Part shown: positions 10,052 through 40,207 of the stretch, piece after piece
Position numbering within the stretch: position 1 is the stretch's first letter
Layout of the letters: each line of letters opens with the position of its first letter
Source of the DNA: PVC group bacterium
GTDB lineage: Bacteria > Verrucomicrobiota > Kiritimatiellia > CAIKKV01 > CAITUY01
Length of the DNA stretch: 64,000 nt
NCBI GenBank assembly: GCA_945870225.1
Contig: CAMBRF010000011.1
Location: 27,826-91,825 of the forward strand
Direction of reading: 5' to 3'
Made by a program: the position numbers and the translations under genes
The notes under the pieces: model-generated
Seen by the model: only the letters and a program-made list of their open reading frames with translations
Database searches by the model: none
What the model was told of the DNA's origin: nothing

Positions 10052-12070
10052 TCAGCGCTTTTCTTTTGGCAGCTCACCCATCGCCGCCTCATTGACGTTA
10101 GTCGCATAGAGACCGGTTTTGCGGCTCCAGGCTTCCGTGGTAGCCTGGGCCACCGCATCGTTCCGCATCACCCGCGGTGTGACGAAAATGATCAGATTGG
10201 TGCGTTCCACACTGTCCACCGTGTGGCGGAAGAGAAAGCCGATCAGGGGGATGGAACCGAGCAGCGGGATCTTACGAACCTGATTGATACGATCCTCACG
10301 AATCAGGCCGCTGATCACAATGGTCCGGCCATCGGGCACAGTCACCGTGGTGGAGACTTCCCGCCGCGCAATGGTGGGGGTGAATTGCGTCCCCGTTGTC
10401 GCCCCGGAATCGATGATCGCCTCAATGCTGGGGTTGAGCGCCATGCAGACCTCATTGGAGGGATTGATGTGCGGCGTCAGCTTGAGTTTGATCCCCACAT
10501 CCACGCGGTCAATGTTCTGGATCACATCCCGTGACGTTCCCGAACCGCCTTGTATGGTGGACTTCAGGATCGGAATATTGTTCACCACGCTGACGCTGGC
10601 TTCCTTGTTGTTCTGGGCCAGCAAGGGAACACTCGACAGGATCCGCACCTTCCCCTGCTTCTGGAGGGCGTTGATGTTCAAGGCGGCTGGAAATCCAGAA
10701 ACCACTTCGCCCGCTGCGTTCAAACGGACTCCCCGCGCCAGGGCAAACGTGATTCCGCGGGGAAAGACGCCCTCCTGAATGTTATTCATCAACCCGGCGC
10801 CGTCGCTCAACTGGCTTGCCCCCTGAACCACCGTATCCCCCACCTTGGAGGGCGCGTTGAGCGCCCCCAGTTCCACGCCCATATCAAGGGATTTATCGGC
10901 GCTGATTTCGGCAATCACCACTTCGATCAGCACCTGCTGGGGCATCTGGTCGAGTTCCAGAACCAGCGACTTCACGAGTTGAAAATCCATGGGGGAGGCG
11001 TCCACCAGCAGGGCATTATTGGCAAGGCTGGCCTCGATGGAAATCCGGCGCCTGTCGGTAACCTTGGACGGCTCCTTGCCCACGGACTTTTCCAGGAGGG
11101 CATTCAGGCTCTTCGACGCCTCCTCGGCCCCAATATACTTCAGGAAGAGCACATGCAGATTCCCTCGTCCGGAAGGCGTTTCAATGTCGATCTGCGCAAG
11201 GATCCGTTTGACGTCCGCGATCTCCACCGCCGGCCCGATCAGCACCAGACTGTTCGATTGCGGCGCCGTCAGCATGACCAATTCCCGGCCCGCGCGGGCC
11301 GGCACCCCGTCACGCACCATCACGCGTTCCTTGGTTCCCGCCGCACTGTTGTATTGCTGGACAAAATCGGCGGCATCCACATGCTTGAGGGCGACCACTT
11401 CGCTGGTCGAACCCGCGCCCGTTTTATCCACTTCGGCGACCACCTGCTCCAAACGCCTCACGTTGTCCGCGGTATCGGTCACGATGAGCAGGTTGGACGC
11501 CTCCAGCACCCCGACAGACCCGCCCCCCTTCTCGCGACCCGACAAAACCTCAAGCACCTTGCGCAGGTCGGCCACATTGGTGTTTTGCAGGCGGATCACC
11601 CGGGTCACAAGCCCGCCCAGGGGAAGAGGCATGCCGACGCCCACTACCGGCGCGGAAGGAACCGTCCGCGCCGACAAAAGCACCACGCGGCTCACGGGGC
11701 CGTCTTCCACCACGGTGCACCCGACCGACTCGAGAATCTTCAGGGATAGGGGATAAGCCTCCGCCACCGGAACACGTGGAGCCAACACGGTGACCTGCCC
11801 TTTTACCGCCTCATCCACCACGAACCGCCGCCCGCTGATTTCCCCAATCACCTTTACAAAGGTACGAACATCAACCTGATCAAAATTGAAATTAACCGTG
11901 CTTTCAGGAGAGGACAGGGCGACCGGATGGTCTGCGTCGCCCGACAGGGCGACCGTGCCCAGCATCACCCAGGCCGCCACCACGCCCGGGCGGACCAGCA
12001 TCGACAACAGGACTCCGGGACGCACTCTCATCGCACCCCTCCCGGCCCTCGCGGGCCGATCACTTGACAA
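10052..12070 (-). CDS. gspD: Type II secretion secretin GspD
   Basis: Secretin N0/N domains and C-terminal VTVPDGRTIVISGLIREDR...PLLGSIPLIGFLFRHT. Confidence 0.93.
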   Translation of the reverse strand: MSSDRPARAGRGAMRVRPGVLLSMLVRPGVVAAWVMLGTVALSGDADHPVALSSPESTVNFNFDQVDVRTFVKVIGEISGRRFVVDEAVKGQVTVLAPRVPVAEAYPLSLKILESVGCTVVEDGPVSRVVLLSARTVPSAPVVGVGMPLPLGGLVTRVIRLQNTNVADLRKVLEVLSGREKGGGSVGVLEASNLLIVTDTADNVRRLEQVVAEVDKTGAGSTSEVVALKHVDAADFVQQYNSAAGTKERVMVRDGVPARAGRELVMLTAPQSNSLVLIGPAVEIADVKRILAQIDIETPSGRGNLHVLFLKYIGAEEASKSLNALLEKSVGKEPSKVTDRRRISIEASLANNALLVDASPMDFQLVKSLVLELDQMPQQVLIEVVIAEISADKSLDMGVELGALNAPSKVGDTVVQGASQLSDGAGLMNNIQEGVFPRGITFALARGVRLNAAGEVVSGFPAALNINALQKQGKVRILSSVPLLAQNNKEASVSVVNNIPILKSTIQGGSGTSRDVIQNIDRVDVGIKLKLTPHINPSNEVCMALNPSIEAIIDSGATTGTQFTPTIARREVSTTVTVPDGRTIVISGLIREDRINQVRKIPLLGSIPLIGFLFRHTVDSVERTNLIIFVTPRVMRNDAVAQATTEAWSRKTGLYATNVNEAAMGELPKEKR

Positions 12071-12863
12071 TGCCTCGTTCCGATGTCTCGATGAAGCTGA
12101 GAAGGTAGTCCAGTTCGGGACAGGCCGTCAGTTCCGCGCGCATTTTTTCCACGGCCTGACGTGTCGACAAACCGTCCCGGCACAGCATCTTGAAGGCTTT
12201 CTTCAGCGTGGACTGCGTCTCAGCGGAAACGCCCAGACGCTGCAACTTAACCGAGTTAACGCCGCGCGCCTCAGCAGGATTGCCTTCCACCAGCAGATAA
12301 GGCGGCACGTCCTGGGTAATCCGCGACATCCCGCCCACCATCGCGAACCGGCCGATCCGCGTAAACTGATGGATGCCCGTCATGCCTCCGATGGTGGCAT
12401 CATCCTCAACCACCCCATCGCCGGATAACGAGGCGCCGTTCGCCATGATAACCCGGTCGCCGACCCGGCTACCATGCGCCACATGACAATACGCCATGAT
12501 CAGGCAACCCGATCCCACCCGGGTCGTCTCACCTTCCGCCGTCCCGGAATTGATCGTCACATACTCCCGGATGGTCGTGCGCTCGCCGATTTCAACGAAC
12601 GTGTCGCCCCCCTTGTACTTCAGGTCCTGCGTGAGACTGCCCAGACTGGCAAACGGGAAAATCGTGCATTCCCTGCCGATCGTTGTCTGCCCGTCCAAAA
12701 AGACGTGCGGCATAACCGTCACCCGATCCCTGAGTTTGACCCGGGGCCCGACGATACTGTAGGCGCCGATTTCGACATCCTCGCCCAATTCGGCCCCGTC
12801 ATGCACAACAGCGGTAGGGTGAATACACGTCACACAGTCACCTTCTGATTCGTGATCATGCAC
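12060..12863 (-). CDS. lpxA: Acyl-ACP--UDP-N-acetylglucosamine O-acyltransferase
   Basis: Left-handed beta-helix hexapeptides, IHPTAVV, GMTGIHQFTRIGRFAMVGG. Confidence 0.93.
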   Translation of the reverse strand: MHDHESEGDCVTCIHPTAVVHDGAELGEDVEIGAYSIVGPRVKLRDRVTVMPHVFLDGQTTIGRECTIFPFASLGSLTQDLKYKGGDTFVEIGERTTIREYVTINSGTAEGETTRVGSGCLIMAYCHVAHGSRVGDRVIMANGASLSGDGVVEDDATIGGMTGIHQFTRIGRFAMVGGMSRITQDVPPYLLVEGNPAEARGVNSVKLQRLGVSAETQSTLKKAFKMLCRDGLSTRQAVEKMRAELTACPELDYLLSFIETSERGIVK

Positions 12864-13276
12864 ATCATCTCCGCCTCAGAGGCCAGTTCACCGTCGACAA
12901 AAACCTTTCCCTGAAAACGGGCGGTCCGGGTTTTGATGGAAAGGAACTCAACCTCAATGCGCATCTGATCCCCGGGCTTGATCACCCGCCGGAACTTGGC
13001 CTTGTCGATCGACATAAAGAAGGGAACACTTTCCCCCGCCTTGGCAATCCGATTCATCAGAATGCCGCCCGTTTGCGCCATCGCCTCCAGCTGCAACACG
13101 CCCGGCATCACTGGAATGCCGGGGAAGTGCCCCTGGAAGAACGGTTCATTCATCGTCACGTTCTTCAAGCCCACAATGCGCTTCTGGTCGTCACACTCCA
13201 CAACCCGGTCCACGAGCAGAAACGGATAGCGATGCGGAAGCAGCTTTAGAATTTCCTGAATATCAAGCGTTGCCAT
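12830..13276 (-). CDS. fabZ: 3-hydroxyacyl-ACP dehydratase
   Basis: LLPHRYPFLLVDRV, NEPFFQGHFPGIPVMPGVLQLEAMAQTGG. Confidence 0.95.
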   Translation of the reverse strand: MATLDIQEILKLLPHRYPFLLVDRVVECDDQKRIVGLKNVTMNEPFFQGHFPGIPVMPGVLQLEAMAQTGGILMNRIAKAGESVPFFMSIDKAKFRRVIKPGDQMRIEVEFLSIKTRTARFQGKVFVDGELASEAEMMCMITNQKVTV

Positions 13277-13313
13277 AGAGCTCCTTTACGTTCGTCCCTA
13301 ACCACGGTCCGGT

Positions 13314-14477
13314 TTACACCGAGCCCTGCAGCGCCTTGATCTTGTCGACCCGTTCCCAGGTGAAATGATCCAGATGATCCGTTCGCCCGAAATGACCGTA
13401 GGCCGAGGTCTCCTCGTACACAGGACGGAGAAGGTCCAAAGTCTTGATGATTTGCGCGGGCTTGAGGCCAAAAACCTTCGTCACGGCCTTGGCGATCTTC
13501 TCGTCGCTGACCTTGCCCGTTCCAAACGTATCCACATGCACCGAGACGGGATCCGGGAAACCGATGGCATAAGCCAGCTGGACTTCGCAACGCCGGGCCA
13601 ACCCTGCGGCCACCACGTTCTTGGCAACATACCGGGCCATGTAGGCCGCGCTGCGATCGACCTTCGACGGATCCTTACCTGAGAAGGCGCCGCCGCCATG
13701 CCGCCCCATGCCGCCGTAGGTGTCCACAATGATCTTCCGGCCCGTGAGACCGCTGTCGCCATGAGGGCCCCCGATCACAAACCGGCCGGTCGGATTGATG
13801 AGGTACCGCGTCTTCTTGAGCAAGCCCGCCGGGATCTCCTTCTTGATGACTTCCTCCAGGATCCCTTCGCACAGGGCCTTGTAGGAGACATCCGGCGAAT
13901 GCTGTGAGGAAACCACTACGGTATCAACCGCAACCGGACGCCCATTCTCATAGGCAACCGTCACCTGAGATTTTCCATCCGGCCGCAGGAACGGAAGCGT
14001 GCCCTTACGGCGCGCCTTCGCCAGAGCGCGAGCCAGGCGATGCGCAAACATGATCGGCATGGGCATCAGCTCGCGGGTTTCATCGCACGCATAGCCGAAC
14101 ATCATCCCCTGGTCGCCGGCGCCCTGCTCCTTGAACAAGCCCTTGCCGGCGGTCACGCCCTGCGAAATATCCGGCGACTGCCGGTCAATCGCCACCATCA
14201 CGGCGCAACTATCCGCGGAAAACCCAAGCGTGGCATCGTTGTAGCCGATTTTCCGGATCTTCTCGCGGGCAATGTCGGCAAAATTGACGATCGCCTTGGT
14301 GGTGATTTCCCCCGCGATCACCACCAGGCCCGTGCTGACAAGTGTTTCACACGCCACGCGGGCTTTGGGATCCTGAGCCAGATTGGCATCAAGAATCGCA
14401 TCGGAGATTCCATCCGCGACCTTGTCGGGATGCCCTTCAGAGACGGATTCGGATGTGAACAGGTATTTGTCGGCCAT
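13314..14477 (-). CDS. metK: S-adenosylmethionine synthase
   Basis: [55 protein letters not shown]. Confidence 0.98.
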
Positions 14478-29090: not shown

Positions 29091-29340
29091 AACTGCTTCT
29101 CCTGATGAATGCGCGAAAAGGCATGATTATGGCATGCTACGGCTCCTCCGCAAGCAGAACTTCCAACCACGACAGGGGGGGGTACGACAAGAATTTTCTA
29201 CAGAACCATCCACAGAAATCCTAATCGCAATCTTAATCACTAGCATCCCACAGGATGCCAGGCTGAAGGTTACTTGGCGGTAGACTGTTAGGAAATACGT
29301 GTATTCCCGCTCGTTTTCGTTCCAAGGCCTTTTCGATGTT

Positions 29341-29580
29341 TGGATTCCGTCTTTATGCGGTTTCAACTAACCCGTTATCGCCGGAACCAAAATGAAGAGT
29401 TTGAACAGAAGTCGCGAAGCACGCGAAGTGCTGCGGCGAAGACGCCGCAGCATAGATTAGGAGCCAGAAATGTCCTGCATGCGCGGCATCTTTGCCGCGC
29501 ATGCCTTTGCGGCCTTCGCGCCTTCTGTTCAAATACTCTTTCAGCTCGAATCCTTACCACGTTTCAACGAATTCCAAATG
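29341..29580. repeat. Repeat family 2, left copy; core 29400-29533 with 12-bp TIRs
   Basis: TTTGAACAGAAG...CTTCTGTTCAAA, two internal hairpins (TGCGGCGAAGACGCCGCA; GCGCGGCATCTTTGCCGCGC). Near-identical to 39790-40021. Confidence 0.9.
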
Positions 29581-29713: not shown

Positions 29714-30250
29714 TCAATCCCCTCCATGCTTCTTGAGCAAGTCAAGGATTCTACGATTTCCAGCCCGCTTGGCAAAAAAGACTGGAGACCACCACGCAAA
29801 ATCCACTCCATCGACCGACCTTACTCGTCGCCCAACATTTGGATCAGCACCTGCGTTCAGAAGAATTTCCACCACATCCTCATGTCCGTATAGACATGCG
29901 AGCATCAATGCAGTCATTCGGGGGTTACACTCAAGAAACTCGTTGAGATTGCGCGACTTAGAGGTCTCCAGGCGGACGACGTCGACTGCTCCGACAGCAC
30001 ACGCCCATGCAAAATTGGAGCCATAAAAGCGGTTTGTGCTGAATCCAACTCTGTTAAAAAGATCAATTCGCACCCTGTCACCAGCGTTCAAGAACCTCTG
30101 GTAATTTTCGTTCGTAATCTCAATACGATCCAAGGCCAGCTTCAGCCGAGCTTCCTCCACGTCATTCATGCGATATTGCGGCGCACAACTGCACAGCAAT
30201 GTAATCCCTGAAATCAATATGAAGCACTGCAACCTTGGATTCTTCAACAT
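29714..30250 (-). CDS. Ankyrin-repeat lipoprotein, array ORF 1
   Basis: Signal peptide with cysteines (ISGITLLCSC); NPRMTALMLACLYGHEDVVEILLNAGADPNVG ankyrin repeat. Confidence 0.7.
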   Translation of the reverse strand: MLKNPRLQCFILISGITLLCSCAPQYRMNDVEEARLKLALDRIEITNENYQRFLNAGDRVRIDLFNRVGFSTNRFYGSNFAWACAVGAVDVVRLETSKSRNLNEFLECNPRMTALMLACLYGHEDVVEILLNAGADPNVGRRVRSVDGVDFAWWSPVFFAKRAGNRRILDLLKKHGGD

Positions 30251-30280
30251 ACAACTTTTCCCCTCAGCAAATTCAGAAAC

Positions 30281-30430
30281 GAGAAGGGTCAGCCCTTAGA
30301 ATAGTGATTAATGTCCGCATTTCCCCTGCTCCTTATCACGTCTCCGCTCAACTTTCCGCACGATTATCATCAACGCACCCTGCCCCGGACACTTATCACC
30401 TGCAGAGTTTATTGTGACGGGCTGACCCTG
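30281..30430 (-). repeat. Array repeat copy A
   Basis: gagaagggtcagcccttagaatagtgattaa...ctgcagagtttattgtgacgggctgaccctg; TIR agggtcagccc/gggctgaccct. Confidence 0.92.
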
Positions 30431-31638
30431 AGCCCCCGCTCACCTACACAATCCCTCCTGTAACTAATTATTTCCACGGGGAAAGGTTCCGTATTCCCGA
30501 CCCATAAGCGAGACTGAGAATCAACACGAAGAGACTCCACGTTTCGCGAAAGCCACGCCAAGACAATACCACGGCTACCCGCCCGACCTCCCCATTCTTG
30601 CGGGTTTAGCCTTTTACTGTAACCACAGTATCGAAGACAGCAATTTTCGAGACCTGTGATGCCCCCTCCAGTCTTATTATTTCTCAAGTTAGTAAGCGCT
30701 ATGGTTGCACTATCCTGCCCCTCTGCAGCCGTCTGCGCTAGCGAAGCAAAAGAACCCTTTGTGTCGGATAGATATTCCTCATATTTTTGAGTCGACGCCC
30801 TATCATATATGTACAACATGTTAGCACCAACTGGCTGCCCTTTTAATAGAGGCAAAGCAAATGCCTGTGCAACTGTCGTCACCATTACATCAATAGTACG
30901 ACGTGAACCGTACAACAATCGCCACGGGACACACTCGTCATCCTTAATAGCGGCATCCACTTGAGACAGTCCCAATTGAATACACTTCGGAGTCCCCCGA
31001 CTAAAGAGTGCTTCCATGACAGCACCGCGCGAACGAATCCACTCCTCCGAATATTTTTCAACTGCTTCGAGGACTACCGAATCCTTCACACTGGCTGCAG
31101 CGTTCAGGGGGGCAAAAACGTCGTCCGCCGGGATCCCTTGAGACGCATCATTAGCCAAATACAACAAACGCTCTTCACTCAAATATGGTGCAGCCAAGTA
31201 TAGAGCCCTTCGTTTTTCCAAAGGCCCTGAATTATTTGCATTATAAATTTTCAGCAAAGACCCAAGCACAAAATCACGTGTTGGTGTCGCTTCTCCTGTC
31301 GCATCCAGCAATTCTCCAGATAGATACAATAGTCGCCCACGAGACTCATGATTCGTCTGTGCCTGATACGCCGCCTCAATCACCGCACATGCTTCAACCT
31401 CGGAGAATTGTTTGCCTTTGCCGATGTTCAAAAGAAAAGTGTGCGGATTTCCATCACGAGCGAAGCCACTTATCATTGAGCGCAAGTCGCTTCCAACTTC
31501 ATCAGCCATTAATACACACCCACTGAGAAATATATTAAAGACCAGAAAAGCGAAAAGACACCGAGAGTTCACCGTTAAATATTTAATATCCGAGGGACGG
31601 GATGGGCCAACCCTTAGAATAGTGATTAAAGTCTGCAT
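30409..31638 (-). CDS. Putative lipoprotein, array ORF 2 (start may be internal)
   Basis: LFAFLVFNIFLSGCVLMADEVG lipobox. The longest ORF begins in repeat B (MQTLITIL) and ends in repeat A (VSPSQ stop). Confidence 0.6.
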   Translation of the reverse strand: MQTLITILRVGPSRPSDIKYLTVNSRCLFAFLVFNIFLSGCVLMADEVGSDLRSMISGFARDGNPHTFLLNIGKGKQFSEVEACAVIEAAYQAQTNHESRGRLLYLSGELLDATGEATPTRDFVLGSLLKIYNANNSGPLEKRRALYLAAPYLSEERLLYLANDASQGIPADDVFAPLNAAASVKDSVVLEAVEKYSEEWIRSRGAVMEALFSRGTPKCIQLGLSQVDAAIKDDECVPWRLLYGSRRTIDVMVTTVAQAFALPLLKGQPVGANMLYIYDRASTQKYEEYLSDTKGSFASLAQTAAEGQDSATIALTNLRNNKTGGGITGLENCCLRYCGYSKRLNPQEWGGRAGSRGIVLAWLSRNVESLRVDSQSRLWVGNTEPFPVEIISYRRDCVGERGLRVSPSQ

Positions 31639-31771
31639 TTCGCCTGCTCCTTATCAAGCCCCTGCTCCACCCACTGGACGATTTCCATGAACTCTCCCCA
31701 CCCTCCCCGGCAAGCTCTTGCTTTTTTTGATTTCTTGGCCTGACCCGATTAAATCCATTGGGTTGACCCCG
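31601..31771 (-). repeat. Array repeat copy B (divergent right end)
   Basis: gggccaacccttagaatagtgattaaagtctgcatttcgcctgctccttatcaag...gggttgaccc. Confidence 0.8.
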
Positions 31772-31796
31772 CCACCCGACCCGCTCTATTGCTCCC

Positions 31797-32324
31797 CTAC
31801 TCCTCAGAGACAACGTGTACCGGCAGAATAAGAACCCCTTTGTCTGACAAACTGTAGATAAACGGCGGGTTTACTTGGAGTTGTGCTGTTCGCAGGATTT
31901 CGAAAAGGGAGCCACCATGCAATGAAATGCTTATTTCTGGCATTTTGCCGTACTCTTTCCATACATCGCTCGGGAAAATTGTGATCTGAACCGAGTTCTT
32001 AGGGTCAACCGATTGACGCTGAGCCTCCATCAACTTGTCGACAAATGATGGTAATGGCTCTTTATCGGCCTCTATTTTGATTCTCGTCGATTTGAGCCGC
32101 ATCAGTGTGTCAAGTTCACCCGAATTCGGCTTGATGATTTGGAAACCAGCCCCCCTCGTCGTATACACAAACGTGCCATTTTTTATCTCGAATGGGCCAA
32201 TGAGCCAACCCGAACTCATATCCCGCGCATAGAACTGCGGAGCGGCAGAGATACAGCCCTGCAGCCCCATAAGCAAAATCACAAGAGAAAACCTCAACGC
32301 CAAATAGATCACTGAATTCTTCAT
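31797..32324 (-). CDS. Putative lipoprotein with secretin STN-like C-terminus, array ORF 3
   Basis: LVILLMGLQGCISAAP lipobox; PEISISLHGGSLFEILRTAQLQVNPPFIYSLSDKGVLIL. Confidence 0.6.
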   Translation of the reverse strand: MKNSVIYLALRFSLVILLMGLQGCISAAPQFYARDMSSGWLIGPFEIKNGTFVYTTRGAGFQIIKPNSGELDTLMRLKSTRIKIEADKEPLPSFVDKLMEAQRQSVDPKNSVQITIFPSDVWKEYGKMPEISISLHGGSLFEILRTAQLQVNPPFIYSLSDKGVLILPVHVVSEE

Positions 32325-32471
32325 GGTGACGGCTCCTGTTCAAGGAAAAGTAATAACAGTGTACTCATAGACCATGGTTGATTCGTCACTCCGTGCGTAC
32401 AGCTTGTAGATACGACCACAATGCCTGCTTTTAGTTTTTGGGTCTGCCCGATCGACGCGCGCTGCCGGAAC

Positions 32472-32570
32472 GAGAAGGGTCAACCCTTAGAATAGTGATT
32501 AAAGTCTGCATTTCACCTGCTCCTTATTAAGGCCCCGCGCAACCTCTGAACGACTTACATCAACTGTTTA
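32472..32570 (-). repeat. Array repeat copy C (right end eroded)
   Basis: gagaagggtcaacccttagaatagtgattaaagtctgcatttcacctgctccttattaaggccccgcgcaac. Confidence 0.85.
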
Positions 32571-33114
32571 ATCCCGCTCTTTGATAAGAGCCCCCACCTG
32601 TCGTCGAAGTCAGCTTGCCTGGTTCAATCCATGTTTTTACGATTTCGCCGCCCGGCACGACTGACAGATAATCAAGTTGCATCTCTTTCGGCCTCTTCTT
32701 TCGCAATAAACATGGAAAGTTTCGATCCTCCGCAAAAGAAGCATACATCACGAGACAAGAGGAAAGAAACACGGCGTGGTCACTGCGCCCTTTTACGTAC
32801 TGAACGCCCATTGTTGAGCCTGCAAATTGCTCCGGCCCCCAAGCACCTCCCTCGATATAAACAATTCTTTTAATGTGCTTATTTACAAGGGATTTGAATT
32901 CCCGCGCTGCAAGATGATCCAACAAAAGAAACGCAGCCTTCACAGCGTCTATTTGCACTGGGACCCAGTCATATTGCTTTGTTGTGGACACGAAGAATAC
33001 GCGGCACTTCCTTATTTTGTATCTCTTCCCCTTCAATCCAATCAACCCCACATAAAGCCATCCAACTAACCCGAGCTCCATGGCCTTAAGCATAATCAAT
33101 TTGATCTTATTCAT
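32560..33114 (-). CDS. Hypothetical membrane-anchored protein, array ORF 4
   Basis: N-terminal hydrophobic segment MELGLVGWLYVGLIGL; no family recognised. Confidence 0.5.
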   Translation of the reverse strand: MNKIKLIMLKAMELGLVGWLYVGLIGLKGKRYKIRKCRVFFVSTTKQYDWVPVQIDAVKAAFLLLDHLAAREFKSLVNKHIKRIVYIEGGAWGPEQFAGSTMGVQYVKGRSDHAVFLSSCLVMYASFAEDRNFPCLLRKKRPKEMQLDYLSVVPGGEIVKTWIEPGKLTSTTGGGSYQRAGLNS

Positions 33115-33144
33115 AAGCTTTACGGCCCTGAATCACTGGGGAAC

Positions 33145-33297
33145 GAGAATGGTCAGCCCATAGAATAGTAATTAAAGGCTGCATTTCGCTAACTCCTTCT
33201 CACATCCCCCGCACAACAGCCTGACGACTTCCATCAAATCACTTCGATCCCTCGGATACTCATCGTTTGCGAAGTTTATTGTGCAGGGCTGACCCTG
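33145..33297 (-). repeat. Array repeat copy D
   Basis: gagaatggtcagcccatagaatagtaattaaaggctgcatttcg...tttattgtgcagggctgaccctga. Confidence 0.88.
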
Positions 33298-33970
33298 ACC
33301 CCTCCGTTTTTATAACAAAGAGTGTTTTGACATCTCCTTTAATATTTTTCTCCGAAATACGAAATTCTAAAGGTGATTTTTGACTCACCAAGGAGCCATT
33401 CACTTCGTGGAGCCCATTCGACAACACGTTTGTTTGACAGGTCAATACGTCTTGAGTTACTACAGATGCTGAAAAAGAATCCAAAACCGCAGAAGCAGAT
33501 GCACTGCACCAACCCTGAACGCGCGTTTCGACAACCCTTCTATCTCGTATCGTTTGCCTATAAATCAGTCCGCTAGGCATTAATGAACGGATTGCTAATG
33601 CCATTTTGCACATGTCATCTGAAATTGGCCCCCATAATTCGGGAGCAGTCTTGCATCGCTTTTCCCAAGCGTCTAATTGTGAGTAATATCCGTACTCACA
33701 CACCATACAAACAACAGCTGGACTCACAGCAAGACCGTATTCAATCCAGAAAAGCAACCGACCTTGAGCATCACGGTTCTCCTCAAGCGTAGGCGGGGCG
33801 TTTTTTCTTTTAATCTGAGGTAACCGCCTCGCCTCAAGCTGCTTGATATCTTTATGACCAAAAGGACAGTTTCTCGGGATCCCCTTTTCGGCTTGAGAAC
33901 ACCCTGTCAGCAGGCTAAATACTGAAGCCAAAAGTGTTAAATACCACACAGGCTTTTGAAATATTTTCAT
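33260..33970 (-). CDS. Putative lipoprotein, array ORF 5
   Basis: MKIFQKPVWYLTLLASVFSLLTGCSQAEKG lipobox; C-terminus runs through repeat D. Confidence 0.6.
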   Translation of the reverse strand: MKIFQKPVWYLTLLASVFSLLTGCSQAEKGIPRNCPFGHKDIKQLEARRLPQIKRKNAPPTLEENRDAQGRLLFWIEYGLAVSPAVVCMVCEYGYYSQLDAWEKRCKTAPELWGPISDDMCKMALAIRSLMPSGLIYRQTIRDRRVVETRVQGWCSASASAVLDSFSASVVTQDVLTCQTNVLSNGLHEVNGSLVSQKSPLEFRISEKNIKGDVKTLFVIKTEGSGSALHNKLRKR

Positions 33971-34165
33971 GGCCACGATCTTCCTGTGATTGGTGCTTGT
34001 TGAGTTGTTGGGGAAAATGAATATGGGGATCTGACGCACCTGCCGCGCGAGGCGGCAGGGAGCAGGAGTAGTCGCGGTGGGCGGCAAAGAGCTGGGAGCA
34101 TGGAGCGCTTGGAAGATGAGAAGGAGGGGGATTGGGAAAGAATGTTGCTGGGTGACCCCAATTGC

Positions 34166-34534
34166 TCAACTCGCTTTCGACCTCCTCCCAAAATACATCC
34201 CTATTAAGAATAAACCACTTCCCAAACAAGCCATGACACCATAAAGAATCTGAACTATTGCAAAAACATTAAAATGATTCACGCTTTGAACAAACATCCG
34301 GCCGTCTCCGACCAGCATGTAGTCCACTCCCATGATTTTTGCTGACGTTGTATAAAACGGATATCTTCTCGACACCTCGACCTCAGTTGGGGTTGCACGA
34401 GCTAACCAATCTTCATAGGTAGCAACTTCAACCCTCGCCTGATGCCACCACCCTATGTACGCGGCACCAGAGAGAAAGACAATCGACGCAATAATGATAG
34501 TTATTTTCACAGCAAATCTCCGATTCATCGGCAA
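34166..34534 (-). CDS. Two-TM hypothetical protein, array ORF 6
   Basis: TMs IIASIVFLSGAAYIGWW and IVQILYGVMACLGSGLFLIGMYFG. Confidence 0.5.
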   Translation of the reverse strand: MPMNRRFAVKITIIIASIVFLSGAAYIGWWHQARVEVATYEDWLARATPTEVEVSRRYPFYTTSAKIMGVDYMLVGDGRMFVQSVNHFNVFAIVQILYGVMACLGSGLFLIGMYFGRRSKAS

Positions 34535-34606
34535 TCAAAGTCAATATATGCGAAGAGCTGACCCCGGTCTCCCCCGGCGGCGCGGAGGAAGATTGTCTAT
34601 TGACGC

Positions 34607-35083
34607 CTACTCTTTGATGGGTGGCCCCAATCGATCCCGCTTGATGACGCGCACTAATCCCCCAACGCAGCCAGCCAAGAACGCACCAGCCGCCGCACTT
34701 GCGAAAACAGAAAGAAATTGCGCGCACAATATTCTCCCCACAATGAGCATTGAAGACTGCTCCAAAAGAGGGAACCAAAAGAAAAAGTTACTCAAAAAGA
34801 GCACCCCCACAATTACGGTAATCGACATAAACTTTCTAATTGAGCCTCGGCAACTGAACTGCCATAGCAACGCAAAAAGAGCAAGAAAACCCATCATTGC
34901 CAACGGCCCTCTATATGCACAAGTGCATACTTCACTTACAAGCCTATAGACAAAGCTACCAAGAAGCCAGACCACTACTGATGATGTCAATACCCCACGG
35001 ATAAGACGGCGGCAGACGGCATGAGCTGAGTGAGTTTCAGAACGAGAAGGGTCAGCTTTTAGAATAGTGATTAAAGTCTGCAT
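34607..35083 (-). CDS. Multi-TM hypothetical protein, array ORF 7
   Basis: Four hydrophobic segments; the ORF begins with the MQTLITILKADPSRS leader encoded in repeat E. Confidence 0.5.
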   Translation of the reverse strand: MQTLITILKADPSRSETHSAHAVCRRLIRGVLTSSVVVWLLGSFVYRLVSEVCTCAYRGPLAMMGFLALFALLWQFSCRGSIRKFMSITVIVGVLFLSNFFFWFPLLEQSSMLIVGRILCAQFLSVFASAAAGAFLAGCVGGLVRVIKRDRLGPPIKE

Positions 35084-35350
35084 TTCGCCTGCTCCTTATC
35101 AAGACCCCGCTCAACCCCTACGGGCCTCAGTTACACTTACCCTGCCCCAGACACTCATCGCCTGCAGAATTTATTGTGCAGGGTGCCCCTGAGAGGCCCA
35201 AAGTTGTTATTTACGCTCTGACCCCGGCACCGGGATATGTGGCACTTCGATGTCAACTCCCCCTCCCAGCGAAGACCATCGATAGCCTTCCTGCACATGG
35301 ATCTGTCGAATCCTGAGCGCCTCCGGAAATTATTGTGCAGGGCTGACCAC
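35044..35350 (-). repeat. Array repeat copy E, composite with two right ends
   Basis: Left/body 35044-35192, then a different segment, then a second right end ttattgtgcagggctgacc (35331-35349). Confidence 0.8.
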
Positions 35351-35368
35351 AGTCGGCGCACGATCCCT

Positions 35369-36487
35369 TCACTCACGCAGCTCTTCATATAGTATAACTA
35401 CGTCATTTGACAGCACCGTACTGCGAAAGAGAGCTGCCCGTTTGGGATAGTCTCCCAGCCGAGATGAACAGAAGACTGTTCCATTTCGAAATGGGATACC
35501 CGCCCAACGTGTGTAATTATTCGACATTTGCACCGGCAACTTCCGGACAACTTTACCTGTACCGAGATCACAAACCCCTAAACCGTAGTCCAGTAAATCG
35601 CCATAAATGGTAAATGCTCCTGCGAAACCCGGCAGGTTGATCGTCGTCTTTTTCTTTAAATCGGGAATATCTACTATCTCAATCCTGTCAGGGTATCCCA
35701 ATACAATGCTATTCTCCCCCCACACAGCTGACCTCTTAAAACGGTCAGGTCGCCCCAGAGATCCAAGTTCCTCTCCACTTTCTCCACTAAGCAGCCAAAT
35801 CCGATTGTTGAGGCGAATGCACAGCCTCCTCCCAGCACAGAACACCTCCTGGTCTGGGGGCACTTTTTCGCTGCTCATTAGCTTGGTTTTGATGGGCGCC
35901 CCGTCTTCTCCTCGAAAAACCATCCACCCAGTCGCACCCCCGACGGTCACAATCTTACCAGCGTCATTTTCCCTCCAGTTAACAGGACTGAATATCAGGC
36001 TTATGACATCTCCGCAGGGCTGAAGCATGACGTTTACATTGGAGAGATCCAAGTTATGCTGCCACTTCAACGCACCACTTGAAAGAGAATGGCGCTGAAG
36101 TGTATAGAAAGATTCATTACGAATCAGTAATGAGACCACATCGCCCCCGCTGAGTGTGCTGACAGCATAGAACGTCATATTGGTCCCGCCCTGGGGCACT
36201 ATTCTGGTCAATACTTTCCCCGTTCGGGAATCCACCGCCAGGATTTCAGACCGTGTCCAAAGCACGACCTTCGACTCATCGACTGGATTTATGGAGACAC
36301 TTGATTCGCCCGTATCTAACCTCCACTTCAGGAGACTGCTTGCGTCCATATCGAACCCAACCACTTCCCCATTACCCCACAGAGAAGCGACCAACATGCT
36401 GCCGCTAGCTTCAATACGACCCGCCGAGGAAGTCACTGCTTTCAGAATTATCAGAAACAATAAGAACTGGAACCGTTTTAAGGACAT
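35369..36487 (-). CDS. Secreted PQQ-like beta-propeller protein, array ORF 8
   Basis: Signal peptide, then repeated SLWGNGEVVGFDMDASSLLKWRLDTGE / VDSRTGKVLTRIVPQGG / LLSGESGEELGSLG blades. Confidence 0.6.
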   Translation of the reverse strand: MSLKRFQFLLFLIILKAVTSSAGRIEASGSMLVASLWGNGEVVGFDMDASSLLKWRLDTGESSVSINPVDESKVVLWTRSEILAVDSRTGKVLTRIVPQGGTNMTFYAVSTLSGGDVVSLLIRNESFYTLQRHSLSSGALKWQHNLDLSNVNVMLQPCGDVISLIFSPVNWRENDAGKIVTVGGATGWMVFRGEDGAPIKTKLMSSEKVPPDQEVFCAGRRLCIRLNNRIWLLSGESGEELGSLGRPDRFKRSAVWGENSIVLGYPDRIEIVDIPDLKKKTTINLPGFAGAFTIYGDLLDYGLGVCDLGTGKVVRKLPVQMSNNYTRWAGIPFRNGTVFCSSRLGDYPKRAALFRSTVLSNDVVILYEELRE

Positions 36488-36545
36488 GTTATTAATGCCT
36501 TTGCTGTCAGAATGCCGCTCGCAAGACGAGATGTTTAGCAACTCG

Positions 36546-36600
36546 CCCTGCCCCGGACCCCTCATCGCTTGTAATGTTCATCGTGAAAAGGGCCCCTAAT
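36546..36600 (-). repeat. Array repeat, right-end fragment F
   Basis: gccctgccccggacccctcatcgcttgtaatgttcatcgtgaaaagggcccct resembles the right half of copies A/E/H. Confidence 0.6.
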
Positions 36601-36620
36601 CGACCCCCATCGCTCGCTGC

Positions 36621-37469
36621 TCAATCTTCCCCACCACCGGACGATAAAACCTTGATCTCTTCAAGGCTATCAGTTGGCGTAAACGACTGGTCATGATGGG
36701 GCACATTCTTTAATTGGAAAGGATCGAGCCCGCTTTTTACAGCAACCTTAATATTTTTTGACCTAAGATTATTGAGCGCAGCAGATTCGAATTCAACAAC
36801 GACAATGAACCCAGATTCCTCGTACTGGTGCCGATCAACCGACAGCGATCCGTACGACAAATATATTCTTCTGACTAAAGGCCATTTTGCCCCATTATTC
36901 ACAATCTCTGGCAATGTCAGCACGCGGTCTAAGACGGTTCCCTTTGGGAATCGAGATTGGGCAACTAACTCAGAAAACGGGAGATGAACGTTTGAAACAA
37001 AAACCGCCTGTGCGCCAACGATGCAACCGGGCTTTTTTGTTGGTATTTCTCGATCAAGTTTGCCCGCGGTTAGCATCAGGTACAGATCGAAACTGTATTT
37101 TGATGCGGTCCTGAACGCATTGGTTTTTATCAGATAGTGACAGTTGATGACGTCTCCGTTTTCCCATTGGTCAATAATGCGAAGACCCTGTCTCATCAGT
37201 TCATTCGACACGTTCTTCCAAGGCTTTCCCACGCATTGTGGTTCAACGACATGAGACATCTCTCTCAATAGAACCTGATACGAAGTGTTGGTCGATCTCA
37301 GCGTCTCCTGAAGCCCATGCACCACATCACAAACAGCCACGGCGGGCGCGGGGTGCGTCTCCACCTTTACTTCACTTCCAATGACCCACCTGCTTGTTAT
37401 CGAACAAGCCAGAACCACAGGCACTATGACAGAGACTATCATGCTTCCCTTCCGGCGATGCGTGATCAT
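36621..37469 (-). CDS. Putative lipoprotein/secreted protein, array ORF 9
   Basis: MIVSVIVPVVLACSITSRW lipobox-like signal; no family recognised. Confidence 0.55.
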   Translation of the reverse strand: MITHRRKGSMIVSVIVPVVLACSITSRWVIGSEVKVETHPAPAVAVCDVVHGLQETLRSTNTSYQVLLREMSHVVEPQCVGKPWKNVSNELMRQGLRIIDQWENGDVINCHYLIKTNAFRTASKYSFDLYLMLTAGKLDREIPTKKPGCIVGAQAVFVSNVHLPFSELVAQSRFPKGTVLDRVLTLPEIVNNGAKWPLVRRIYLSYGSLSVDRHQYEESGFIVVVEFESAALNNLRSKNIKVAVKSGLDPFQLKNVPHHDQSFTPTDSLEEIKVLSSGGGED

Positions 37470-37493
37470 GGCAAAAACAGGAGTATTGGGGAA

Positions 37494-37636
37494 CGAGAAG
37501 CCCTTGGAATAGTGATTAATGCCGGCATTTCGCCTGCTCCTTATTAAGACCCCGCTCAACTTTCCGCACAATTATCATCAACACACCCATTCCGGATACG
37601 CATCAAATAATATGCTCAATGTGAAGGGCTATCCCC
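37494..37636 (-). repeat. Array repeat copy G
   Basis: gagaagcccttggaatagtgattaatgccggcatttcgcctgctccttattaagaccccgctcaactttccgcac. Confidence 0.85.
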
Positions 37637-38449
37637 AATCGGACCGTTCACTTTCCCAGACGTCCCTCTGATGGCATTATTTGCTGCATTCATATCGCCA
37701 TCACTAAGCACACCTTGCCTCTTAAAACGTTCTAATGAATCCATCATTTCCGGAGTTAGCGGAAGCTTGCTAGGTCCACGATCGAACTCCCCTTTGTCAT
37801 AGCGCTCCCAAAATAGTTTTGCCGGCACCACTTCAGACCCGACACCAATATGAATCAAAGACTTCATTTCACGAATAGCAGTAATCCCGAATTTGATACG
37901 TTCCGGAGAGAATCTCAATGCCTCAAGAGGCAACGCTCGCAGAGGCGATAGATCATCAATAGGCGTTCCTGAAACATCAAGTGAGTTAAGCGGAATAGTT
38001 CCTAACATTTTAAGCGATGAGATTCGAGTGCCCGCTGCGACAAGAACGGAAAGCGGCATCCCTTTTACGAAATCAAGGTTGTCAACTTTTGTCATAGAGC
38101 AGTTCAACATTCGCAGGGGAATTCCTGTTAATGGTGTCATGTTGCTCACTAATGTTGAACTGACGTCAAGAACGGTTAACGGCATTCCTGACAACGGCGA
38201 TAAATCAATTACTTCTGTTCCGCGAAGCGAAAGAACTGATATTGGCAGTCCCTTCAAAACAGACAAGTTTTGAATATTTCCTTCCGATAAATCAACACTC
38301 AGCAAGCCATTCGAGACTACTGTGACATATTTATACTCTATTGCAGCACGCTCCAACACGCGGACCACTGAATCCTTACCAGCCTGATCTGCAAATACAG
38401 CGTTAATGCTTACAATATAGACAAGGAGACAGACAACCCATGCAATCAT
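37616..38449 (-). CDS. Secreted leucine-rich-repeat protein, array ORF 10
   Basis: Signal peptide (NAVFA|DQ) and tandem LRRs: IQNLSVLKGLPISVLSLRGTEVIDLSPLSGMPLTVLDVSSTLVSNMTPLTGIPLRMLNCSMT. Confidence 0.75.
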   Translation of the reverse strand: MIAWVVCLLVYIVSINAVFADQAGKDSVVRVLERAAIEYKYVTVVSNGLLSVDLSEGNIQNLSVLKGLPISVLSLRGTEVIDLSPLSGMPLTVLDVSSTLVSNMTPLTGIPLRMLNCSMTKVDNLDFVKGMPLSVLVAAGTRISSLKMLGTIPLNSLDVSGTPIDDLSPLRALPLEALRFSPERIKFGITAIREMKSLIHIGVGSEVVPAKLFWERYDKGEFDRGPSKLPLTPEMMDSLERFKRQGVLSDGDMNAANNAIRGTSGKVNGPIGDSPSH

Positions 38450-38513
38450 TCAGAACCTCACTTTATGACGAGTTTTATTAACTGAACTTTATCGCGCACT
38501 TACAATTTGGGAA

Positions 38514-38664
38514 CGAGAAGGGTCAGCCTTGAGAATACTGATTAAAGTCTGCATTTCGCCTGCTCCTTATCCAGTCCCCGCTCAACCCGCCTGACGACTT
38601 ACATCAACTCACCCGACCCAGGACACTTATCGCCTGCAGAGTTTATTGTGCCGGGCTGACCCTG
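38514..38664 (-). repeat. Array repeat copy H
   Basis: gagaagggtcagccttgagaatactgattaaagtctgcatttcgcctgctccttat...gcagagtttattgtgccgggctgaccctg. Confidence 0.92.
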
Positions 38665-38726
38665 ATCACGCCTCGCGCCAATCACGGAAAAGCTTAGCTG
38701 GACCTTGCATTTTCTCGTTGGTGAAC

Positions 38727-39215
38727 TCATTTTTTCATTATCGATAGATGTGTCGCCAACATCAGCAGGACTGTCACATCAATCAAGACAAGTACAACGG
38801 GAAGGACCGTTGCCCCAACTGATTTGGGAAGCCGGCGGCTTGCAAAACACACGATGGCCAAAGAGAATAGGCACACAATGATATTACTCAGCAAAGATCC
38901 CACGATCTGTGCGAGACACAGATACCACATGGCGGCGTTGCCTGGCTGAGTGATGGGGCCGTCTGTCATCATCCGGATGCTCGCCACAGTTTCAAGGAGA
39001 AGAAACAGGAGCATCTGCGCAATCACGAAGCCAGCAAAAATCGTTGGATCTCGGTTGGGTGTCCTTTTAACCAGCCACCTGAGCGAGATCGCAAGTGCAG
39101 CCACCAACACGGCCACTGCGGAACCCCAGGTGATGATGAAGTAGAAAGGGAAGCCACCGATCGGGGCGACTGCCCAGAACTCCGTGCTTCCTGGCGCTGG
39201 TGGCTGAATAGTCAT
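38727..39215 (-). CDS. Four-TM hypothetical protein, array ORF 11
   Basis: Hydrophobic segments FYFIITWGSAVAVLVAALAI, FVIAQMLLFLLLETV, LLSNIIVCLFSLAIVCF, VLPVVLVLIDVTVLLMLAT. Confidence 0.5.
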   Translation of the reverse strand: MTIQPPAPGSTEFWAVAPIGGFPFYFIITWGSAVAVLVAALAISLRWLVKRTPNRDPTIFAGFVIAQMLLFLLLETVASIRMMTDGPITQPGNAAMWYLCLAQIVGSLLSNIIVCLFSLAIVCFASRRLPKSVGATVLPVVLVLIDVTVLLMLATHLSIMKK

Positions 39216-39660: not shown

Positions 39661-39782
39661 GAAGACGCCGCAGCATGGATTGGGCGCCAGAAATGCCCTG
39701 CAGGCGCGGCATCTTTGCCGTGCATGCCTTTGCGGCCTTCGCGCCTTCTGTTCAAATACTCTTTCAGCTCGAGTCCTTACCA
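39661..39782. repeat. Repeat family 2, truncated copy
   Basis: gaagacgccgcagcatggattgggcgccag...cttctgttcaaatactctttcagctcgagtccttaccac. Confidence 0.88.
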
Positions 39783-39789
39783 CATTATT

Positions 39790-40021
39790 TGGAGTCCGAC
39801 TTTATGCTGTTTCGACTAACCCGTTATCGCCGAAACCAAAATGAAGAGTTTGAACAGAAGTCGCGAAGCACGCGAAGTGCTGCGGCGAAGACGCCGCAGC
39901 ATGGATTGGGTGCCAGAAAAGCCCTGCAGGCGCGGCATCTTTGCCGCGCATGCCTTTGTGGCCTTCGCGCCTTCTGTTCAAATACTCTTTCGGCTCGAAT
40001 CCTTACCACGTTTCGAGGAAT
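39790..40021. repeat. Repeat family 2, right full copy; core 39849-39982
   Basis: Same 134-bp TIR core and flanks as 29341-29580. Confidence 0.9.
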
Positions 40022-40207
40022 TCAATTCGTAAAAAATATAGGCCTACATCCTGAATCGCCTCAGCCTTGGCGTCCCTATGGGACGCCCGTGACTGAATAA
40101 CGAAAACGCGAATTTTTTTATGGCTCGTTCCGGCCAGGCCAGACATAATCGCCGACAACTGTACTCGATCTGTAATCGGACGACACAAAAATCAATGTAG
40201 GACCACC

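What the first reader, a model, noticed from the sequence alone, without database searches (positions are those of the whole stretch)
29714..39215. Head-to-tail array of 11 orphan ORFs separated by oriented ~150-bp TIR repeats (cassette-like, no integrase seen)
Seen directly: copies A (30281), B (31601), C (32472), D (33145), E (35044), G (37494), H (38514) and right-end fragment F (36546) share 'gagaagggtcagcccttagaatagtgattaaagtctgcatttcgcctgctccttatcaagaccccgctcaac ... gcctgcagagtttattgtgcagggctgaccctga'. The ends form an inverted repeat (GGGTCAGCCC/GGGCTGACCC). All copies point the same way, all 11 ORFs are on the same strand, and most boundaries are one repeat per ORF. Random MITE insertion should give mixed orientations, so inference is a unit of gene + repeat that is gained or shuffled as a cassette, or a repeat retained for a role in expression. 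I recognise no known function shared by the ORFs.
Basis: partly seen in the sequence, partly recalled or inferred. Interest (0 to 1): 0.85.

Follow-up and report, generated by a model that had tools for sequence, protein, structure and literature searches.

The report
Orphan immunity genes with transposon spacers
A row of eleven unrelated small genes, most likely spare antidotes against toxins from rival bacteria, is separated by short, decayed copies of a known kind of jumping DNA that all point the same way because this element prefers one DNA strand when it inserts, not because gene and repeat move together as cassettes.

Summary
In detail: seven ~155-bp repeats plus two fragments, all in one orientation, lie in 8 of the 10 gaps between eleven co-directional ORFs. 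Apart from one remnant, these are the only copies found in the 2.7-Mb, 84%-complete genome.

The repeats are not attC sites or a new cassette. They are miniature derivatives of a TIRYT element (REP/IS200-type Y1 transposase with GGGTCAG inverted repeats). In a same-family genome the same ends flank an intact transposase. In another genome the parent and five internally deleted copies coexist. Co-orientation has an ordinary cause: 21 of 23 such elements in relatives lie on the G-rich strand, against 60 of 108 control genes (p=9e-4).

The ORFs are a low-GC island of exported or membrane proteins. Class-wide, o3 and o4 have one homolog each, and each sits directly downstream of an Rhs toxin gene. 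An o10-like gene overlaps the end of a third Rhs gene; o1 carries ankyrin repeats. I therefore read the array as a heterogeneous polyimmunity (orphan immunity) locus, resembling rAID arrays but with transposon relics as spacers and no recombinase on the contig.

Immunity function is inferred, with direct support for 3 of 11 ORFs. A true MITE-driven cassette system is not excluded but unlikely.

The parts
29714..30250 (-). o1: lipoprotein-like ORF with ankyrin repeats (Ank is a known immunity fold)
   Evidence: Pfam Ank 1.9e-10; lipobox-like LLCSC by eye; Imm-Ank in PMC3482391
30278..30432 (+). TIRYT-derived MITE copy A, both ends present
   Evidence: o2 stop codon lies inside it
30409..31575 (-). 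o2: lipoprotein-like orphan, last codons supplied by MITE A
   Evidence: no Pfam/NCBIfam/PHROG hit; no class-level homolog
31594..31755 (+). MITE copy B, left end good, right end decayed
31797..32324 (-). o3: lipoprotein-like; homolog is the gene directly downstream of an Rhs gene in G146
   Evidence: 31-38% identity, tblastn 1e-24; context L122
32467..32570 (+). MITE copy C, left end only
32560..33114 (-). o4: N-terminal hydrophobic segment; homolog overlaps the stop of an Rhs gene in G026
   Evidence: 24-25% identity, tblastn 2e-9; context L123
33139..33300 (+). MITE copy D, both ends present
   Evidence: o5 stop lies inside
33260..33970 (-). o5: lipoprotein-like orphan, C-terminus supplied by MITE D
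34166..34534 (-). o6: membrane orphan; no repeat recognised in either adjacent gap (toward o5 and o7)
34607..35083 (-). o7: membrane orphan, could start at the ATG inside MITE E
35038..35193 (+). MITE copy E, both ends present
35294..35350 (+). isolated right-end fragment
35369..36487 (-). o8: exported orphan, faint beta-propeller similarity
   Evidence: sub-threshold Pfam propeller hits
36539..36600 (+). MITE fragment F, right end only
   Evidence: E 0.008 with copy A
36621..37469 (-). o9: exported orphan
37485..37640 (+). MITE copy G, decayed; o10 stop lies inside
37616..38449 (-). o10: exported leucine-rich-repeat protein; an LRR gene sharing its C-terminal FW(E/Q)RYD motif overlaps an Rhs gene in G071
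   Evidence: Pfam LRR_4, L197
38504..38665 (+). MITE copy H, closest to consensus, both ends present
38727..39215 (-). o11: multi-pass membrane orphan
29339..29574 (+). left copy of a dispersed 236-bp repeat bordering the island
39788..40023 (+). right copy (94%) of the same repeat, with a partial copy at 39661-39786

Best explanation
The region is an imported or fast-evolving low-GC island of orphan immunity-like genes (a heterogeneous polyimmunity locus) whose gaps hold old, decayed miniature derivatives of a TIRYT element. SHOWN: the repeats carry the two ends of a Y1/REP-type transposase element, including the last codons of the transposase, with the middle deleted; such elements in relatives lie on the G-rich strand; o3 and o4 have homologs directly downstream of Rhs genes; all eleven ORFs begin with a hydrophobic segment. 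INFERRED: each ORF once protected, or still protects, the cell against one Rhs-type toxin of a competitor, so cells that keep a stock of such genes survive attack. The TIRYT copies were inserted from single-stranded lagging-strand template, giving one orientation. Insertions inside genes were lost, leaving about one per gap. The copies may now be passive, or may give patches of homology that help recombination add and remove genes.
For: Transposon identity: in same-family genome G005 the ends GGGTCAGCCCTTAGATTAGTAATTA and ...TTATTCTAAGGGCTGACCC flank a Y1 transposase gene (Pfam Y1_Tnp 4e-6; NCBIfam REP_Tyr_transpos 7e-15, below that model's cut-off). G072 holds a 1.1-kb parent and five 207-212-bp deletion copies with the same ends. 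Other Y1 loci of the order carry related GGGTCAG inverted repeats. Array copies retain 21 codons of the transposase C-terminus. Orientation: 21/23 elements on the G-rich strand, 14/15 where skew is strong, against 60/108 control genes, Fisher p 9e-4 and 0.004; the array copies obey it (skew -0.15, equivalent strand minus). Immunity: o3 and o4 homologs are each the next gene after an Rhs core ORF (Rhs_assc_core 2e-15 and 2e-25); an o10-like LRR gene overlaps an Rhs ORF by ATGA. Rhs genes of this genome and order are followed by short low-GC ORFs, GC median 0.51 against 0.58, p 6e-4, often with an N-terminal hydrophobic segment. All 11 array ORFs have such a segment against 57/171 controls, p 1e-5. 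Ank and LRR immunity proteins and co-oriented toxin-free polyimmunity loci are described in PMC3482391.
Against: Seven of eleven ORFs (o2, o5-o9, o11) have no homolog at all, so immunity is extrapolated to them, and o1 rests on fold type alone. The o10 link is weak: of 13 LRR loci examined only one is beside Rhs. No ORF matches a named Imm family. Most described immunity proteins are cytoplasmic (PMC3482391), whereas these look exported. Insertion alone does not explain why almost all copies in the genome sit in one 8.4-kb stretch; that needs import of the island or local hopping, and neither was shown. No syntenic empty site was found in relatives. GC skew is only a proxy for replication direction.
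Confidence: 0.6

Rival explanations
1. The repeat is the mobility site of a gene-cassette system: each unit of one ORF plus one repeat is gained, lost and reordered, either by the TIRYT transposase acting in trans on composite single-stranded units or by homologous recombination between repeats.
For: One orientation, 8 repeats in 8 distinct gaps of 10 (p 0.018), no copy inside an ORF, ORFs unrelated, copies confined to the array, GC island. Immunity arrays of rAID type have conserved intergenic motifs and a recombinase (PMC12247911).
Against: The same repeats occur as ordinary dispersed MITEs beside their parent in G072. Orientation is explained by strand bias. B, C and G lack the right end and F the left, so they could not be active sites. 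Four ORFs run into the repeat, as after insertion at a gene end. No recombinase or transposase gene on contig C11. No second array with other genes was found in 348 genomes of the class.
Confidence: 0.12
2. The array is a decayed integron cassette array: the genome does encode an integron integrase, and the island is a run of cassettes that has lost its integrase.
For: Integron integrase model TIGR02249 at 387 bits on contig C34, next to a low-GC exported ORF and palindromic attC-like sites.
Against: No attC-like R/L box pair in the array. The CGTTCGG motif that recurs three times beside the integrase occurs once in the array, inside o8 and not in a gap, though the simple scan also failed on the C34 sites, so only the motif comparison counts. 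The array repeats match a Y1 element instead.
Confidence: 0.05
3. The ORFs are simply a horizontally acquired low-GC orphan island of mixed surface proteins with no immunity role, peppered with MITEs.
For: Most ORFs have no homologs and no family hits; GC 47-50% against 60%; no syntenic counterpart in relatives.
Against: The two ORFs with a single class-level homolog both have it directly after an Rhs gene, which is unlikely by chance at a few Rhs genes per genome, and a third ORF has such a relative.
Confidence: 0.22

Closest known systems
TIRYT / TIRtron elements (TIR-associated Y1 transposases; Di Nocera et al. 2013, PMC3733652; probably subclass 2.1 TnpA-REP in PMC6006769)
   Same: Y1 REP-type transposase gene flanked by inverted repeats with a GGGGWSAS-type motif; short copies of the ends dispersed in the genome
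   Different: In the array nearly all copies sit one per gap in a single island, are decayed, and no parent transposase of this type was found in the genome
REPINs / RAYT-mobilised REP doublets (PMC3116915, PMC2817692)
   Same: Short non-autonomous extragenic units with two inverted ends derived from a Y1 transposase system; tandem REP arrays in P. fluorescens also have opposite orientation on the two sides of the chromosome
   Different: Ends are imperfect TIRs without a strong hairpin or GTAG tag; single digits of copies, not hundreds; part of the spacer derives from the transposase gene
Heterogeneous polyimmunity loci of polymorphic toxin systems (Zhang et al. 2012, PMC3482391)
   Same: Toxin-free row of co-oriented, tightly packed, unrelated genes including ankyrin and LRR proteins; relatives sit beside Rhs toxins
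   Different: Proteins look exported or membrane-bound, match no named Imm family, and gaps are filled by transposon relics
rAID arrays of Bacteroidales (recombinase-associated acquired interbacterial defence, PMC12247911)
   Same: Co-oriented short genes of low GC with conserved intergenic sequence
   Different: No tyrosine recombinase on the contig; intergenic sequence is a transposon derivative; immunity not demonstrated
Orphan immunity arrays of Vibrio cholerae T6SS clusters (PMC5361080)
   Same: String of immunity genes left after toxins are displaced
   Different: No toxin or secretion gene adjoins this array
Integron cassette arrays / attC
   Same: Repeat-separated co-oriented orphan genes, low GC; the genome has an integron elsewhere
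   Different: Repeats are Y1-element derivatives and the array is not linked to the integrase

Membership tests
TIRYT-derived MITE | Ends shared with an intact Y1 (HUH) transposase element | tested here: met
   G005 element
TIRYT-derived MITE | Non-autonomous copies are internal deletions of a parent in the same genome | tested here: inconclusive
   Shown in G072; in G000 no parent of this type was found, the nearest Y1 gene being only 34% identical, in an 84%-complete genome
TIRYT-derived MITE | Inverted repeats with GGGGWSAS motif | tested here: met
   GGGGTCAG in G072 and most loci of the order; the variant AGGGTCAG in G005 and the array
TIRYT-derived MITE | C-terminal helix-turn-helix of subclass 2.1 transposases | not tested
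   Only the Y1 domain was scored
REPIN | GTAG-tagged strong palindromes at both ends | tested here: not met
   Tip hairpins little or no more stable than shuffles (best z -1.8 at one end of the G005 element); right ends lack a conserved tetranucleotide
Integron cassette array | attC sites between genes | tested here: inconclusive
   None found, but the simple scan also missed the sites beside the genome's integrase; no dedicated attC model was available
Integron cassette array | Integron integrase adjacent | tested here: not met
   Integrase on contig C34; none on C11
rAID system | Array of co-oriented short low-GC genes | tested here: met
   122-388 aa, low relative to a 60% GC genome; absolute GC is above the 41% rule used for Bacteroidales
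rAID system | Tyrosine recombinase at the head of the array | tested here: not met
   tblastn of IntI and Xer proteins against contig C11
rAID system / polyimmunity locus | Genes encode immunity proteins | tested here: inconclusive
   Homolog context supports o3, o4 and, weakly, o10; function needs experiment
Heterogeneous polyimmunity locus | No toxin genes within; same orientation; small gaps | tested here: met
   No Rhs core motif in the window; gaps are essentially the MITEs

The most novel reading that the evidence does not exclude
TIRYT ends act as the assembly device of an immunity-gene array: neighbouring copies in direct orientation let the Y1 transposase, or recombination between copies, mobilise the gene lying between them on single-stranded DNA. 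This would be a cassette system for interbacterial defence built on a REP-type transposase instead of a tyrosine integrase.
Probability: 0.1. Interest if true: 0.85.

Novelty: new variant of a known kind. Interest (0 to 1): 0.5.

Why it matters
It corrects a tempting cassette reading by showing that co-orientation is expected for single-strand transposons, and gives genome-comparison evidence for such a strand bias in TIRYT elements, for which I found no published test. It also points to a probable orphan immunity locus with exported proteins in an uncultured lineage, with testable toxin partners (the Rhs genes beside the o3, o4 and o10 relatives).

Tried and rejected
Leader peptide or ribosome-binding function of the repeat: all copies carry AAGGAG-8-ATG, but this is the inherited 3' end of the transposase gene, and substitutions are not enriched at third positions. 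Selection on the left half only: left ends are lost in 2 of 9 pieces and right ends in 3 of 9, so no clear asymmetry. Promoters or terminators in the repeat: no excess over shuffles. Rfam: no relevant family in the window. Exact-pattern scans of public genomes: nothing for the long motif, one distant hit without a transposase for the short one. Phage origin: no PHROG hits. Plasmid relatives of o3: none. Single-sequence AlphaFold models of o4 and o9 have pLDDT 31-35 and were not used. Synteny of flanking genes in the order: none. Tandem duplication of units: the closest repeat pairs (A-H, E-H) are not neighbours.
Full report
OBSERVATION. The repeats are real. Seven copies (A, B, C, D, E, G, H) and two right-end fragments lie between 30270 and 38670, all in + orientation. 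They fill 8 of 10 gaps between eleven minus-strand ORFs that are unrelated to each other. Eight of eight in one orientation has p 0.008, and eight in eight distinct gaps of ten p 0.018. The whole genome (2.70 Mb, 84% complete, 54 contigs) holds no other BLAST match and one 62-bp remnant on contig C6 by profile search. GC drops from about 60% to 47-50% over the array.

WHAT THE REPEAT IS. A profile of the repeat finds a match in genome G005 of the same family. There the two ends flank a Y1 transposase gene: left GGGTCAGCCCTTAGATTAGTAATTA, overlapping the 3' end of the gene, and right TTATTCTAAGGGCTGACCC, about 50 bp upstream of its start. The protein matches Pfam Y1_Tnp and NCBIfam REP-associated tyrosine transposase (E 7e-15, below that model's curated cut-off). 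Array copies still encode about 21 C-terminal codons of it. In genome G072 of the same class a 1.1-kb parent and five 207-212-bp deletion copies share the inverted repeat GGGTCAGCCCTTAGAATA. Other Y1 genes of the order are flanked by related ends (GGGGTCAGACC, GGGGTCAGGTC and so on). This is the TIRYT/TIRtron group of PMC3733652 (motif GGGGWSAS) and PMC6006769. The array repeats are therefore old, partly truncated MITEs of a TIRYT element.

WHY ONE ORIENTATION. IS200-type Y1 elements use the lagging-strand template (PMC6006769). I tested 17 TIRYT-type genes and six elements of the G072 family against GC skew of their flanks: 21 of 23 lie with the transposase strand on the G-rich strand, 14 of 15 where skew is strong; all five gene-less MITEs of G072 agree, though skew is weak at three of them. 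Control genes in the strong-skew loci show 60 of 108 (Fisher p 9e-4 against all elements, 0.004 against the strong set). The array copies follow the same rule (skew -0.15; equivalent strand minus). Co-orientation thus needs no cassette.

WHAT THE ORFS ARE. Only two have a family assignment, and both are generic repeats: o1 ankyrin and o10 leucine-rich repeats. Apart from o1 and o10, a search of 348 genomes of the class finds homologs for o3 and o4 only (at most two candidates scored per genome). The o3 homolog in G146 starts 10 bp after an Rhs-core ORF (L122:14-1186 then 1196-1768). The o4 homolog in G026 overlaps the stop of a 1853-aa Rhs ORF (L123:4562-10123 then 10116-10637). An o10-like LRR gene in G071 overlaps an Rhs ORF by ATGA and shares the C-terminal FW(E/Q)RYD motif; twelve other LRR loci lacked Rhs, so this is weaker. 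The position directly 3' of an Rhs toxin is that of the immunity gene. Rhs genes in this genome and order are followed by short ORFs of lower GC (median 0.51 against 0.58, p 6e-4, n=7, which includes the o3 and o4 homologs), 5 of 7 with an N-terminal hydrophobic segment. All eleven array ORFs have one, against 57 of 171 controls (p 1e-5; a crude hydropathy score, not a signal-peptide predictor, at the most permissive of three thresholds; 9 of 11 against 45 and 31 of 171 at the stricter two). Ankyrin and LRR immunity proteins, and rows of co-oriented toxin-free immunity genes (polyimmunity loci), are described in PMC3482391.

MECHANISM. Most likely the island is a stock of orphan immunity genes gained by transfer and kept because they protect against toxins of neighbours; TIRYT copies inserted into gaps and gene ends, where they did no harm. 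Four ORFs (o2, o4, o5, o10) now end inside a repeat, as expected for insertion at the 3' end of an existing gene. Not explained: why nearly all copies are here. Import of the island from a donor with the element, or local hopping, are the candidates; relatives offer no empty site.

COMPARISON. It resembles rAID arrays (co-oriented short low-GC genes with conserved intergenic sequence, plus a tyrosine recombinase; PMC12247911) and Vibrio immunity arrays (PMC5361080). It lacks the recombinase, and immunity is unproven, so I do not file it as rAID. It is not shown to be an integron array: attC-like pairs were not found, but that scan also missed the sites beside the genome's own integrase, so the argument rests mainly on the repeats being a Y1 element.

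VERDICT. Repeat identity is close to certain, the orientation explanation likely, immunity probable for o3 and o4 and extrapolated for the rest, cassette mobility unlikely. The taxonomic name of the host was not available.

Noticed in passing
G000 contig C34 (L092:11324-12583 minus; 12600-14070): The genome carries a genuine integron integrase (TIGR02249, 387 bits) beside a low-GC exported ORF and three ACGTTCGG-ended palindromic sites; the contig ends within the array.
   Followed up: partly
window 29339-29574, 39661-39786, 39788-40023 and about ten long copies elsewhere in G000: A dispersed 236-bp palindromic repeat (GTTTGAACAGAAG...CTTCTGTTCAAA) borders the island on both sides in the same orientation.
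   Followed up: partly
L104 (G007:C122) and L097 (G016:C15): Two of about twenty TIRYT genes of the order lie within a few kb of Rhs loci, one with short TIR pairs next to a low-GC membrane ORF; by my rough estimate about 0.4 expected, so only suggestive.
   Followed up: partly
L173 (G016:C169): Four Rhs-core ORFs in series with short low-GC membrane ORFs between the third and fourth, a classic orphan toxin/immunity series.
   Followed up: no
L092:9382-11262: LacI-type N-terminus fused to a long proline-rich repeat region next to the integron integrase; a similar fusion lies beside a TIRYT element in L098:1668-2690.
   Followed up: no
L098 (G005:C82): A roughly 1-kb segment ending in a TIRYT left end is duplicated at 95% on the contig (4020-4999 and 7060-8082).
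   Followed up: no
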